A DNA stretch of 33,199 nt from Candidatus Krumholzibacteriia bacterium (GTDB lineage: Bacteria; Krumholzibacteriota; Krumholzibacteriia; WVZY01; JAKEHA01), in assembly GCA_025923935.1 (NCBI GenBank), contig JAICFA010000006.1, forward strand, positions 1 through 33,199. Reading direction: 5' to 3'. Below, one piece after another: positions 28,266-33,199 of this stretch (position 1 is its first letter; the number at the start of each line of letters is the position of its first letter). Under the pieces are notes generated by a model, which saw only the letters and a list, made by a program, of their open reading frames with translations, was not told the origin of the DNA and searched no databases. Position numbers and translations under genes: made by a program.

Positions 28266-31200
28266 ATGAGCTTAGTTTCATATCCCAAACTTGGATCGAG
28301 CCAGAACGTCCCCGCCGCCGAGGAAGCGATTGCCGCGTTCTGGGAGCGCGAGCGCGTCTTCGAGCGCAGCGTGGAGAACCGCCCGGCCGAGAACGCGTTC
28401 GTGTTCTACGAAGGCCCGCCGACGGCCAACGGCCGCCCCGGCGTGCACCATGTCATCGCGCGCCTGTGCAAGGATCTCGTGTGCCGCTACCACACCATGC
28501 GCGGACGACGCGTGGTGCGCAAAGCGGGATGGGACACGCACGGGCTCCCGGTCGAGATCGAAGTCGAGCGCGAGCTCGGCATCGAGCGCAAGGAACAGAT
28601 CGAGGAATTCGGCATCGCGGAGTTCAATCGCAAGTGCCGCGAGAGCGTCTTCCGCTACGAGAAAGATTGGGTGGCGTTCACCAAGCGCATCGCGTTTTGG
28701 GTGGACCTCGAGCATCCCTACGTCACCTACCACAATTCGTACATCGAGTCGGTGTGGTGGATCTTGAAGGAGTATTGGAAGGCGGGGCTCGTCTACCAGG
28801 GGCACAAGATTGTCCCGTTCTGTCCGCGCTGCGAGACCTCTTTGTCCAGCCACGAGGTGAGCCAGGGCTATAAGGATGCCACCGACCCGTCGGTGTTTGT
28901 GATGTTCCACCGCGCCGATGCCGATGAAGACTTTCTGGTGTGGACCACGACACCGTGGACGCTCATCTCGAACGCTGCCCTCGCGGTCGGCGCAGATCAC
29001 GATTACGCCCGCGTGGTGCACAACGGCCGCACTCTCGTCTTGGCGCAGGCGCGGCTCGCGGTGTTGGAGGGCGAATACGAAGTGCTCGCCACCATGAAGG
29101 GCAGCGAGCTCGTGGGCGCGCGCTATCAACCGCTGTTCCCGTACTACGCCGACACACCGGGTGCGTTTCGCGTGGTGGCGGGCGACTTCGTGAGTCTGGA
29201 AGACGGTACCGGCATCGTGCACATCGCACCCGCATTCGGCGAGGACGACTATCGCCTGCACCGCGAGCACGAGGTTCCGCTCATCCAAGCGGTCGCCCCC
29301 AATGGGCGTTTCGTCGACGGTGTCAGCGAATGGAAGGGCCAGTTCATCAAGGACGCGGATCCGTCGATCGTGAAGGCGCTCAAGCAGAACTCGCGGCTAT
29401 ACAAGAGCGGCAAAATTACCCACTCGTATCCGTTTTGCTGGCGCTGCTCGACACCGCTCATGTATTACGCGCGGCCGGCGTGGTACATCCGCACGACCTC
29501 GTACAAAGACCGCATGATCGAGGCGAACAAGACCATCAACTGGGTCCCCAAGGAAGTGGGCGAGCACCGCTTCGGCAATTGGCTGGAGAACAACGTCGAC
29601 TGGTCGCTGTCGCGCGAGCGCTACTGGGGAACGCCTCTCAATATTTGGACGTGCACCGGGTGCGGCCAACAAGATGCGGTTGGCAGCATCGACGAGCTGC
29701 GCGAGCGTGCCGTCGCGTTTCCCAAGAACGAGCTCGACCTGCACCGGCCCTACGTCGACGAAATCGAGCTCACGTGCGCGTGCGGCGGATCGATGCGTCG
29801 CGTCAAGGAAGTGATCGACGTCTGGTTCGACTCCGGCGCCATGCCCTTCGCGCAGTATCACCACCCGTGGGACGAGTCGGGGATGTTCAAGACGCAGTTC
29901 CCGGCCGACTACATCTGCGAAGGCATCGACCAGTCGCGCGGCTGGTTCTATTCGCTGCTTGCCATCTCGGTGTTTCTCACCGGCAAGAGCCCGTACCGCA
30001 ACTGCCTCACCACCGAGCTGATTCTCGACAAGCACGGACAAAAAATGTCGAAGAGCAAGGGCAACGCCGTCGAGCCGTGGGACATCTTGAACGCCGACGG
30101 TGCCGACGCGCTGCGCTGGTACTTGCTCACCACCAGCCCGCCGTGGAGCCCGACGCGCTTCGACCGCGACGGGGTCAAGGACACCGCGCGCAAGATGCTG
30201 GAGAACCTGCGCAACGTGTACGCGTTTTTTGCGATGTACGCCGCGGTCGACGGATACCGGCACGGCCCCGACACGGGAGCACGCTCCCTTCTCGATCGCT
30301 GGATTCTGTCCCGTTATCACAGCATGGTCGCGCACGTGACACAGTGCATGGACGAGTACGACGCCACGCGCGCAGCGCGCTCGCTGGAGCGTTTCGTGCT
30401 GGACGACGTTTCCAACTGGTACGTGCGCCGATCGCGGCGGCGCTTCTGGAAGGGAACCGCGGGGCCCGACAAGACGGCGGCGTACCACACGCTGCACACC
30501 GTGCTGGACGGAACCGCGCGTTTGCTGGCGCCGCTCGTGCCGTACCTGGCGGAGGAGTTGTATCTCGCTCTGCGCGGCGTGACTCCGCAGCAATCGGCGC
30601 AGCACAGCGTCCACCTGGAAGACTTCCCGCGCGCGGATGCGAGTGCCATCGACGCGGAGCTCGAAGCCACCATGGAGGTGGCCCTCGAGGTGACATCGCT
30701 GGGGCGGACGGTGCGCAACGACACCGGGGTGCGCGTCCGCCAGCCGCTCGCGCGCGTTTTGGTGCACGCGACCGACGCTGCGCGACTCGATCGCTTCTTC
30801 GCCAACGACGAGGTCGTCGCACTGGTGAAGGACGAGCTCAACGTGCGCGCTCTCGAGCGCGTCGACCACCTCGAGCGGTTCGTAACACTCGCCGCCGCGC
30901 CCAACTTTCCGGTGCTGGGGAAGAAGTACGGCAAGCGCGTGCCGGTCATCGCCGATGCCATCAAGAAGCTCGACACCGCGTCGCTGCTCCGCTTCGGCGA
31001 AAAGGGGAGCGCCTTGCTCGCGCTCCACGACGGCGGCGAAGCGGTTACCGTGCTGCGCGAAGACGCCACCGTGGCGGCTACACCGGTGGCCGGCTTCGGC
31101 GCGCGCGAAGAGCGCGGTCTGACAGTCGTCGCCGACCTCGCCATCGACGACGATCTCAAGCTCGAGGGCGACGCGCGCGAAGTGATCAACCGGCTGCAGA

Positions 31201-31418
31201 ATCTGCGCAAGCAGTCGGGTCTCGACGTCACCGACCGCATCCGTCTGCGTTACGACGGCGGCACGCACGTGCAGCGCGTGTTCGAGGTACAGGGTGTCTT
31301 GATCGCCGACGAGACCTTGGCGCGCGAGGTGGCGCGCGGACCGGCGGACTGGAGCGGCCGCGCGCAATTCGAACTCGATGGTGAGCCGGTCACCGTGTGG
31401 CTCCAGAAATCGGATTGA
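28266..31418 (+). CDS. ileS: Isoleucyl-tRNA synthetase, IleRS2-like, with GVHH in place of HxGH signature
   Basis: FYEGPPTANGRPGVHHVIARLCKDLVCRYHTMRGRRVVRKAGWDTHGLPVEIEVE; WTTTPWTL; GIVHIAPAFGEDD; DVWFDSGAMPFAQ; KMSKSKGNAVEPWDIL. Confidence 0.95.
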   Translation: MSLVSYPKLGSSQNVPAAEEAIAAFWERERVFERSVENRPAENAFVFYEGPPTANGRPGVHHVIARLCKDLVCRYHTMRGRRVVRKAGWDTHGLPVEIEVERELGIERKEQIEEFGIAEFNRKCRESVFRYEKDWVAFTKRIAFWVDLEHPYVTYHNSYIESVWWILKEYWKAGLVYQGHKIVPFCPRCETSLSSHEVSQGYKDATDPSVFVMFHRADADEDFLVWTTTPWTLISNAALAVGADHDYARVVHNGRTLVLAQARLAVLEGEYEVLATMKGSELVGARYQPLFPYYADTPGAFRVVAGDFVSLEDGTGIVHIAPAFGEDDYRLHREHEVPLIQAVAPNGRFVDGVSEWKGQFIKDADPSIVKALKQNSRLYKSGKITHSYPFCWRCSTPLMYYARPAWYIRTTSYKDRMIEANKTINWVPKEVGEHRFGNWLENNVDWSLSRERYWGTPLNIWTCTGCGQQDAVGSIDELRERAVAFPKNELDLHRPYVDEIELTCACGGSMRRVKEVIDVWFDSGAMPFAQYHHPWDESGMFKTQFPADYICEGIDQSRGWFYSLLAISVFLTGKSPYRNCLTTELILDKHGQKMSKSKGNAVEPWDILNADGADALRWYLLTTSPPWSPTRFDRDGVKDTARKMLENLRNVYAFFAMYAAVDGYRHGPDTGARSLLDRWILSRYHSMVAHVTQCMDEYDATRAARSLERFVLDDVSNWYVRRSRRRFWKGTAGPDKTAAYHTLHTVLDGTARLLAPLVPYLAEELYLALRGVTPQQSAQHSVHLEDFPRADASAIDAELEATMEVALEVTSLGRTVRNDTGVRVRQPLARVLVHATDAARLDRFFANDEVVALVKDELNVRALERVDHLERFVTLAAAPNFPVLGKKYGKRVPVIADAIKKLDTASLLRFGEKGSALLALHDGGEAVTVLREDATVAATPVAGFGAREERGLTVVADLAIDDDLKLEGDAREVINRLQNLRKQSGLDVTDRIRLRYDGGTHVQRVFEVQGVLIADETLAREVARGPADWSGRAQFELDGEPVTVWLQKSD

Positions 31419-31502: not shown

Positions 31503-31871
31503 ATGAACAAGAAGGATCTGCAGCGATACAAGAAGCTCATCGAGGACGAACGGCTGCGCGTCGGGGAGCGCGTCGACATGAAGGAAATTCAAGGGATGGC
31601 CGCAAGCCAGTCCGGCAATCAGAGCTACTCCAACCACATGGCCGACATCGGCAGCGACGCCATTGAGCAGGAACAGGCGTTTCTGCACGCCAGCCAGGGT
31701 ACCGACTACCTCATGGCGCTCGAGGATGCGCTGCGGCGCATCGACAAGGGCACCTACGGTGTGTGCGAGGAGTGCAGCGAAAAGATTCCGCCGCGCCGCC
31801 TGGAGGCGTTCTTGGCCGCGCGCTTGTGCGTGAAGTGCCAGTCGAAGCTCGAGCGCCTGCAGAGGAGCTAG
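31503..31871 (+). CDS. TraR/DksA-family C4 zinc-finger protein (YlyA-like)
   Basis: NQSYSNHMADIGSDAIEQEQ...ALEDALRRIDKGTYGVCEECSEKIPPRRLEAFLAARLCVKCQSKLE: four Cys in a CxxC-x17-CxxC arrangement. Confidence 0.93.
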   Translation: MNKKDLQRYKKLIEDERLRVGERVDMKEIQGMAASQSGNQSYSNHMADIGSDAIEQEQAFLHASQGTDYLMALEDALRRIDKGTYGVCEECSEKIPPRRLEAFLAARLCVKCQSKLERLQRS

Positions 31872-31872
31872 C

Positions 31873-32400
31873 GTGGCGTTGTTCCTGCCCGCGATCTTGA
31901 TCGTCGTCGTCGATCAGATCACGAAGTACCTGTTCTGGAGCAACGGCCAGAACTATGTGATTATCGACGGCTTCCTCAACATCACATTGGTAAAAAATGC
32001 CGGCGCCGCCTTCGGTATGTTCCAGGGCGGCCGTGCTTTTTTCATCGGCGCCAGTGTCATCGCCGCCGTTCTCATTACATACCTGGGGATGAAGCTCCCG
32101 CGCGAAGAGCGCGCCCGGCGGATTTGGCTGGGTTTCATCCTGGGTGGGGCGGTGGGCAATCTCATCGACCGCGCGCGTTTTGGCGAAGTGGTCGACTTTC
32201 TCCAGATCGGGTTTCAGGGCCACTACTGGCCGGTGTTCAACGTCGCCGACATCGGCGTCACGGTGGGCGCCTCCATGCTCATTCTGTATGCCCTGATGCC
32301 GCACCGCGCCGGCCGGCCCACGGTGGCCGACAGCGCTGCCGCCGCGCCACCGGCTCCCGCCGCAGAAGTGGCCAGCGAGGACGCGACGCCGCACGTGTAA
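31873..32400 (+). CDS. lspA: Signal peptidase II (lipoprotein signal peptidase)
   Basis: VVDQITKYLF, LVKNAGAAFGMF, GFILGGAVGNLIDRARFGEVVDFLQIG, PVFNVADIGVTVGA contain the catalytic Asp motifs. GTG start. Confidence 0.94.
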   Translation: MALFLPAILIVVVDQITKYLFWSNGQNYVIIDGFLNITLVKNAGAAFGMFQGGRAFFIGASVIAAVLITYLGMKLPREERARRIWLGFILGGAVGNLIDRARFGEVVDFLQIGFQGHYWPVFNVADIGVTVGASMLILYALMPHRAGRPTVADSAAAAPPAPAAEVASEDATPHV

Positions 32401-32428: not shown

Positions 32429-33199
32429 GTGAACTCTCCCAACTCCACCATCTCCATTACCGTCGATCCCGCCGCTGCCGGCGAGCGGCTCGACCGTTTC
32501 TGCGCCGCGCGCATTCCCGCCATCTCGCGCACGCAAGCGCAGGCCCTCAACGCGGGCGGAGGCATTCGCGTGGATGGGCGCGCGCGACCGGACAGCTACG
32601 CGTTGCGTGAAGGCGAAGAGGTGGTCGTCGATACCACACTCCTGCCGCGCCCGCGCAGCGCCGCGCCCGAGCCGCAGTCGCTGCCCGTCGCGGTGGTGTT
32701 CGAGGACGACGCAATCGTCGTGGTCAACAAGGCGGCCGGGGTGGTGGTGCATCCGGCACACGGCAACTGGGATGGCACCCTCGTCAACGCGCTGCTCGGT
32801 CGCGGAACCGCTCTCTCGGCCGTCGGCGGCGACCGCCCGGGTGTCGTGCACCGTCTCGACAAGGACACCTCGGGACTCATCGTGCTCGCGAAGACGGATG
32901 CGGCGCACCGCGCGTTGTCGGCGACCATCAAGGCGCACGAGTTGGAGAAGACCTACCACGCCGTGGTCGTCGGCAACGTGCGAGCACGCGCGCTCTCGGT
33001 GGAAGGTGCCATCGCCCGCCACCCGGTCCATCGCAAGAAAATGGCGGTGGTGAGCACGGGCGGGCGGCCGGCGCGCACGGAGGTCTTCGTGGTAGACACC
33101 TATTATCATTTCGACTATATTCGCGTGACCACTAAAACGGGACGGACGCACCAGATACGCGTGCACATGGCGCACGCCGGCAACCCTCTGCTCGGGGAC
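32429..33199 (+). CDS. rluD: RluD-family 23S rRNA pseudouridine synthase, truncated at right window edge
   Basis: Not in ORF track because it runs off the edge. GTG at 32429 gives VNSPNSTISITVDPAAAGERLDRFCAARIPAISRTQAQ (S4-like), GVVHRLDKDTSGLIVLAKT (catalytic Asp motif), TKTGRTHQIRVHMAHAGNPLLGD. Confidence 0.92.
   Translation, partial: MNSPNSTISITVDPAAAGERLDRFCAARIPAISRTQAQALNAGGGIRVDGRARPDSYALREGEEVVVDTTLLPRPRSAAPEPQSLPVAVVFEDDAIVVVNKAAGVVVHPAHGNWDGTLVNALLGRGTALSAVGGDRPGVVHRLDKDTSGLIVLAKTDAAHRALSATIKAHELEKTYHAVVVGNVRARALSVEGAIARHPVHRKKMAVVSTGGRPARTEVFVVDTYYHFDYIRVTTKTGRTHQIRVHMAHAGNPLLGD

What the first reader, a model, noticed from the sequence alone, without database searches (positions are those of the whole stretch)
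28440..28451. IleRS with inverted class I signature motif (GVHH instead of HxGH)
The codons GGC GTG CAC CAT, at the exact position of the HIGH motif (TANGRPGVHHVIAR), encode G-V-H-H, a swap of the first and third residues of HxGH. The rest of the enzyme, including KMSKS, is intact and reads like an IleRS2 enzyme. A GxHH variant has been reported in a subset of IleRS2 proteins and linked to extreme mupirocin resistance, so this organism may carry an intrinsically mupirocin-hyper-resistant sole IleRS. It sits in the housekeeping ileS locus, not in a resistance island.
Basis: partly seen in the sequence, partly recalled or inferred. Interest (0 to 1): 0.72.

Follow-up and report, generated by a model that had tools for sequence, protein, structure and literature searches.

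The report
Isoleucyl-tRNA synthetase with known swapped motif
The enzyme that loads isoleucine onto its tRNA in this uncultured bacterium has a rearranged catalytic signature (GVHH instead of HxGH); this variant was published in 2023 as a cause of very strong resistance to the antibiotic mupirocin, and it is the normal state across this bacterium's whole phylum, so the find is real but ordinary.

Summary
Codons GGC GTG CAC CAT at 28440-28451 encode Gly59-Val-His-His62 of a complete 1050-aa IleRS (28266-31418, +), exactly at the class I HIGH position; no HxGH exists elsewhere in the protein, and KMSKS, the editing site and the type-2 C-terminal domain are intact. Sequence and fold both match Priestia megaterium IleRS2, including 8c8w, the engineered GVHH mutant.

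Brkic et al. 2023 (PMC10485003) described G/AXHH in 86 of 163 IleRS2, showed by two-way mutagenesis that it raises mupirocin Ki about 200-800-fold, and solved structures. What I add: this is the only IleRS found in the genome (89% complete). The organism belongs to Krumholzibacteriota, where 67 of 80 genomes carry the GVHH form, usually as sole IleRS and inside a gene order (ileS-dksA-lspA-rluD) shared with other phyla. Two lineages in the phylum have instead a canonical IleRS1 or eukaryote-like IleRS. So the motif is an old vertical trait, not a recent resistance gain; whether mupirocin ever selected it is unproven. Hyper-resistance of this enzyme is inferred by homology, not measured. Verdict: genuine, new member of a known kind, low interest.

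The parts
28266..31418 (+). ileS: isoleucyl-tRNA synthetase type 2 (IleRS2), 1050 aa from ATG 28266 (alternative GTG start 28254)
   Evidence: TIGR00392 923.5 bits over cut-off; Pfam PF00133, PF08264, PF19302 DUF5915, no IleRS1 zinc finger; best solved structures are PmIleRS2 8c8w/8c8v
28440..28451 (+). [quoted passage not shown]
   Evidence: read directly; aligns without gaps with HVGH of PmIleRS2/TtIleRS2 and GVHH of the engineered mutant 8c8w; helix starts at residue 61 in the AlphaFold model
30042..30056 (+). KMSKS motif (residues 593-597), canonical
28944..28964 (+). editing-domain threonine-rich motif TTTPWTL (residues 227-233), intact
   Evidence: columns invariant among 36 aligned relatives
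30822..31409 (+). type-2 specific C-terminal domain (DUF5915, residues 853-1048)
   Evidence: PF19302 E=3.3e-43
31503..31871 (+). DksA/TraR-type zinc-finger protein, next gene downstream
   Evidence: PF01258; found downstream of ileS in most relatives
31873..32400 (+). lspA, signal peptidase II
   Evidence: PF01252; conserved neighbour
32429..33199 (+). rluD-like pseudouridine synthase (runs off the contig end)
   Evidence: PF00849, S4; conserved neighbour

Best explanation
This is the organism's housekeeping IleRS, of type 2, with the natural G/AXHH form of the class I signature motif. Shown here: the motif sits at the HIGH position in an otherwise complete IleRS2; it is the only IleRS found in the genome; it is the prevailing state throughout the phylum. 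Inferred from the 2023 study of homologues: the third-position His takes over the catalytic role of the missing first His, because the motif-bearing helix tip in IleRS2 is shifted away from the adenine; the same His clashes with mupirocin, so the enzyme should be active yet have a mupirocin Ki in the high-micromolar to millimolar range.
For: GVHH at residues 59-62 and no other HxGH. Ungapped alignment with PmIleRS2 and TtIleRS2 through the motif. Confident fold (pLDDT 91) nearest to PmIleRS2 structures, TM about 0.82, 44% identity. Type-2 C-terminal domain DUF5915 and no IleRS1 zinc finger. Single IleRS: other hits in the genome are ValRS/LeuRS/MetRS-like, below the ileS cut-off. GVHH in 67 of 80 phylum genomes. 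Published Ki values: DrIleRS2 ALHH 6600 uM, dropping to 8.1 uM with HVGH; PmIleRS2 1.08 to 460 uM and TtIleRS2 0.20 to 35 uM with GVHH; S. griseus IleRS2, which has the motif, about 10 mM (PMC10485003; PMC4861432).
Against: No biochemical data for this enzyme or, as far as I found, for any Krumholzibacteriota. The engineered GVHH-TtIleRS2 reached only 35 uM, so resistance depends on background and could be lower than millimolar. The genome is 89% complete, so a second IleRS cannot be fully excluded, though single-contig relatives G002 and G004 also have just one.
Confidence: 0.93

Rival explanations
1. The GVHH form is an old structural state of this IleRS2 clade kept by descent or for another reason (for example a trade-off with tRNA-dependent pre-transfer editing in the synthetic site), and mupirocin resistance is a by-product rather than its function. 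(This concerns why the motif is there, and is compatible with the best explanation of what the enzyme is.)
For: The motif is almost uniform over a whole phylum and in GxHH relatives from Calditrichota, Cloacimonadota, Zixibacteria, KSB1, Gemmatimonadota, some Bacillota and Actinomycetota. Lineages inside the phylum have changed to canonical IleRS1 or eukaryote-like IleRS. S. griseus IleRS2 lacks tRNA-dependent pre-transfer editing (PMC4861432).
Against: Mutagenesis in both directions ties the motif directly to resistance (PMC10485003). I found no editing data that link GxHH as such to loss of pre-transfer editing.
Confidence: 0.45
2. The enzyme is a degenerate or non-housekeeping paralogue, so the odd motif reflects loss of function.
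For: The first His of HxGH is catalytically important in other class I enzymes (stated in PMC10485003).
Against: Only IleRS found in the genome; all other motifs intact; housekeeping gene neighbourhood; conserved in dozens of relatives; a natural AXHH enzyme is fully active.
Confidence: 0.02
3. A recently acquired resistance gene in place of a sensitive IleRS1.
For: IleRS2 genes do move between bacteria (PMC4861432) and IleRS type switches occur inside this phylum.
Against: In the tree the window enzyme sits with its own order (support 100) and within a 38-row group made of the phylum's GVHH enzymes; the gene lies in a conserved ileS-dksA-lspA-rluD order.
Confidence: 0.03

Closest known systems
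G/AXHH (non-canonical signature) IleRS2, Brkic et al. 2023, e.g. Deinococcus radiodurans ALHH and Streptomyces griseus IleRS2
   Same: Same type-2 enzyme, same swap of first and third motif residues, canonical KMSKS, housekeeping IleRS.
   Different: From Krumholzibacteriota, a phylum not named in the main text of that paper; no kinetic data.
Priestia megaterium IleRS2 (8c8v wild type HVGH; 8c8w engineered GVHH)
   Same: Full-length fold and about 44% identity; the window's PTANGxPGVHH equals the engineered mutant's motif.
   Different: The natural P. megaterium enzyme is canonical and coexists with IleRS1; Leu585 of the window stands where it has His582 near the adenine/mupirocin site.
MupA/MupB (mupirocin-resistance IleRS2 of Staphylococcus)
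   Same: Same type-2 family; NCBIfam MupB and MupA models score 938 and 920 bits.
   Different: Far below the curated cut-off of 1900 bits; chromosomal housekeeping gene, not an acquired second copy.

Membership tests
IleRS (TIGR00392) | Score above the curated ileS cut-off | tested here: met
   923.5 against 621.4 bits
IleRS type 2 | Type-2 C-terminal domain, no C-terminal zinc-binding motif of IleRS1 | tested here: met
   PF19302 DUF5915 at 853-1048, no zf-FPG_IleRS match; CxxC pairs only at 186, 391, 463, none near the C terminus
IleRS type 2 | Groups with IleRS2 and not IleRS1 | tested here: met
   about 30% identity to the phylum's own IleRS1 (L120, L121), 42-60% to IleRS2
Non-canonical G/AXHH IleRS2 | Gly/Ala first and His third in the HIGH position | tested here: met
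   GVHH residues 59-62
Non-canonical G/AXHH IleRS2 | Amino acid activation with near-normal efficiency | not testable with these tools
   needs ATP/PPi exchange with purified enzyme
Mupirocin hyper-resistant IleRS2 | Mupirocin Ki in the high-micromolar to millimolar range | not testable with these tools
   needs inhibition kinetics; inferred from homologues
Sole IleRS of the genome | No second ileS1 or ileS2 | tested here: met
   one match over cut-off in G000 at 89% completeness; one each in single-contig relatives G002, G004, G012, G028
MupA/MupB | Score above the curated cut-off of 1900 bits | tested here: not met
   938 and 920 bits

The most novel reading that the evidence does not exclude
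GxHH, not HxGH, is the older state of the large bacterial IleRS2 group that includes this enzyme, with the canonical motif of Bacillota IleRS2 (the P. megaterium type) a later reversion. That would make the swapped motif a long-standing alternative catalytic signature of class I synthetases rather than a recent resistance adaptation.
Probability: 0.3. Interest if true: 0.45.

Novelty: new member of a known kind. Interest (0 to 1): 0.15.

Why it matters
It shows the swapped motif is not a curiosity of a few soil bacteria but the standard state of an entire uncultured phylum's only IleRS, which cautions against reading the motif as a sign of mupirocin exposure and widens the natural set of enzymes in which the mechanism can be tested. 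It has no direct clinical meaning: nothing suggests mobility or a pathogen.

Tried and rejected
Compensating residues: Leu585 (P. megaterium His582, near adenine and mupirocin) and Asn121 differ almost perfectly between GxHH rows and the Bacillota HxGH rows. Rejected as motif-linked: the eukaryote-like HYGH enzymes also have Leu and Asn, Thermus HVGH also has Asn, and five GxHH enzymes have His at 585. The motif changes only 2-3 times on my trees, too few for any test. Second IleRS: other class I hits in the genome fall below the cut-off and are ValRS/LeuRS/MetRS-like. Recent transfer: contradicted by tree and gene order. Pfam searches failed on wrong coordinates or frame; the second was repeated correctly.

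Full report
What is there. The codons at 28440-28451 are GGC GTG CAC CAT and encode Gly-Val-His-His. They lie in frame in an ORF of 1050 codons from ATG 28266 (or 1054 from GTG 28254) to the stop ending at 31418. The motif is residues 59-62 in EGPPTANGRPGVHHVIARLCKD. There is no HxGH anywhere else in the protein, and KMSKS is at 593-597.

What the protein is. NCBIfam gives isoleucine--tRNA ligase, 923.5 bits against a cut-off of 621.4; the MupA and MupB models match at about half of their cut-off. Pfam shows the class I core, the anticodon-binding domain and DUF5915 at the C terminus, with no IleRS1 zinc finger. In the Protein Data Bank the closest full-length sequences are the P. megaterium IleRS2 entries, and the best of them by score is 8c8w, the engineered GVHH mutant, with the motif in register and no gap. 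An AlphaFold model built from the window protein and 35 relatives is confident (mean pLDDT 91.2), places the motif at the start of helix alpha-1 (helix from residue 61), and its best fold matches are again P. megaterium IleRS2.

Is it known. Yes. Brkic et al. 2023 (PMC10485003) reported that 86 of 163 IleRS2 in their set carry G/AXHH, that no IleRS1 does, and that swapping the motif in either direction changes the mupirocin Ki by about 200 to 800-fold with modest catalytic cost. They solved structures that explain why IleRS2 can accept the third His and IleRS1 cannot, and modelled the clash of that His with mupirocin. An earlier paper (PMC4861432) measured a Ki of about 10 mM for S. griseus IleRS, which carries the motif.

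How this case fits. The window is a contig of a 3.16 Mb draft genome of 418 contigs, 89% complete. One gene passes the IleRS cut-off; the other class I hits are ValRS-, LeuRS- and MetRS-like. Of the 80 genomes held for that phylum, 67 contain the PTANGxPGxHH stretch, nearly always in a single IleRS, including single-contig relatives in the same order. Of the 13 others, two have a canonical IleRS1 (PPYANGDIHVGH: G011, G019) and two a eukaryote-like IleRS (PPFATGLPHYGH: G007, G012), while most of the rest have fragments or no gene in the draft. Outside the phylum the nearest relatives also carry GxHH (Calditrichota, KSB1, Cloacimonadota, Zixibacteria, Gemmatimonadota, some Bacillota, Acidimicrobiia), while Bacillaceae and Epulopiscium-type IleRS2 carry HxGH.

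Gene context. Downstream of ileS lie a DksA/TraR zinc-finger protein, lspA and an rluD-like gene, and upstream a purine nucleoside phosphorylase-type protein, DivIVA and a PLP-binding YggS-like protein. The ileS-dksA-lspA-rluD order recurs in the phylum and in several other phyla. This is a housekeeping locus.

Mechanism, with the status of each step. Swapped motif in a complete IleRS2: shown. Sole IleRS: shown within the limits of an 89% draft. Active enzyme in which His61 does the work of the missing first His: inferred from published homologues. Mupirocin hyper-resistance: inferred; expected Ki at least tens of micromolar and probably high-micromolar to millimolar. Selection by mupirocin: not shown; the phylum-wide, mostly vertical pattern together with replacement in some lineages makes it only one of two reasonable readings.

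A side result. On two trees with the motif columns left out, the Bacillota HxGH enzymes fall inside the GxHH rows, and holding all HxGH rows together is weakly rejected (p-AU 0.027). That hints that the canonical motif of the Bacillota enzymes is a reversion, whereas the 2023 paper inferred HXGH for the ancestor of the major clade. My sampling was chosen by similarity to a GxHH query and the group was named after seeing a first tree, so this is a lead and not a result.

Verdict. The case adds one phylum to its range. Interest is low.

Noticed in passing
L120 (G019), L121 (G011): Two Krumholzibacteriota genomes of one genus have a canonical IleRS1 (PPYANGDIHVGH) instead of the GVHH IleRS2: a type switch inside the phylum, away from the dksA-lspA-rluD locus.
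   Followed up: partly
L117 (G012), L118 (G007): Two genomes of another family have a eukaryote-like IleRS (PPFATGLPHYGH, KMSKRLKNYP) as their only IleRS.
   Followed up: partly
G001 (same order, 96% complete, 80 contigs): No IleRS of any type was detected, only ValRS- and LeuRS-like genes; probably an assembly or binning gap.
   Followed up: no
L122 (G005:C178:1-1626): A second, distant IleRS2 fragment with ITANNPMGVHHAWGRTYKD beside the usual type in the same draft genome; only 34% identical to the window enzyme, possibly contamination.
   Followed up: no
L043, L047, L057, L068-L070, L073, L075, L078, L081: Bacillota IleRS2 with canonical HxGH branch inside the GxHH rows (p-AU 0.027 against one HxGH clade), hinting at a reversion not named in the main text of the 2023 paper.
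   Followed up: partly
L080: A Solirubrobacteraceae IleRS2 reads GTHH: the second motif position is Thr, outside the Ile/Val/Leu/Met/Tyr set listed in the 2023 paper.
   Followed up: no
G021:C107 and G021:C147: Two stretches matching the GVHH pattern in one genome (5% contamination).
   Followed up: no
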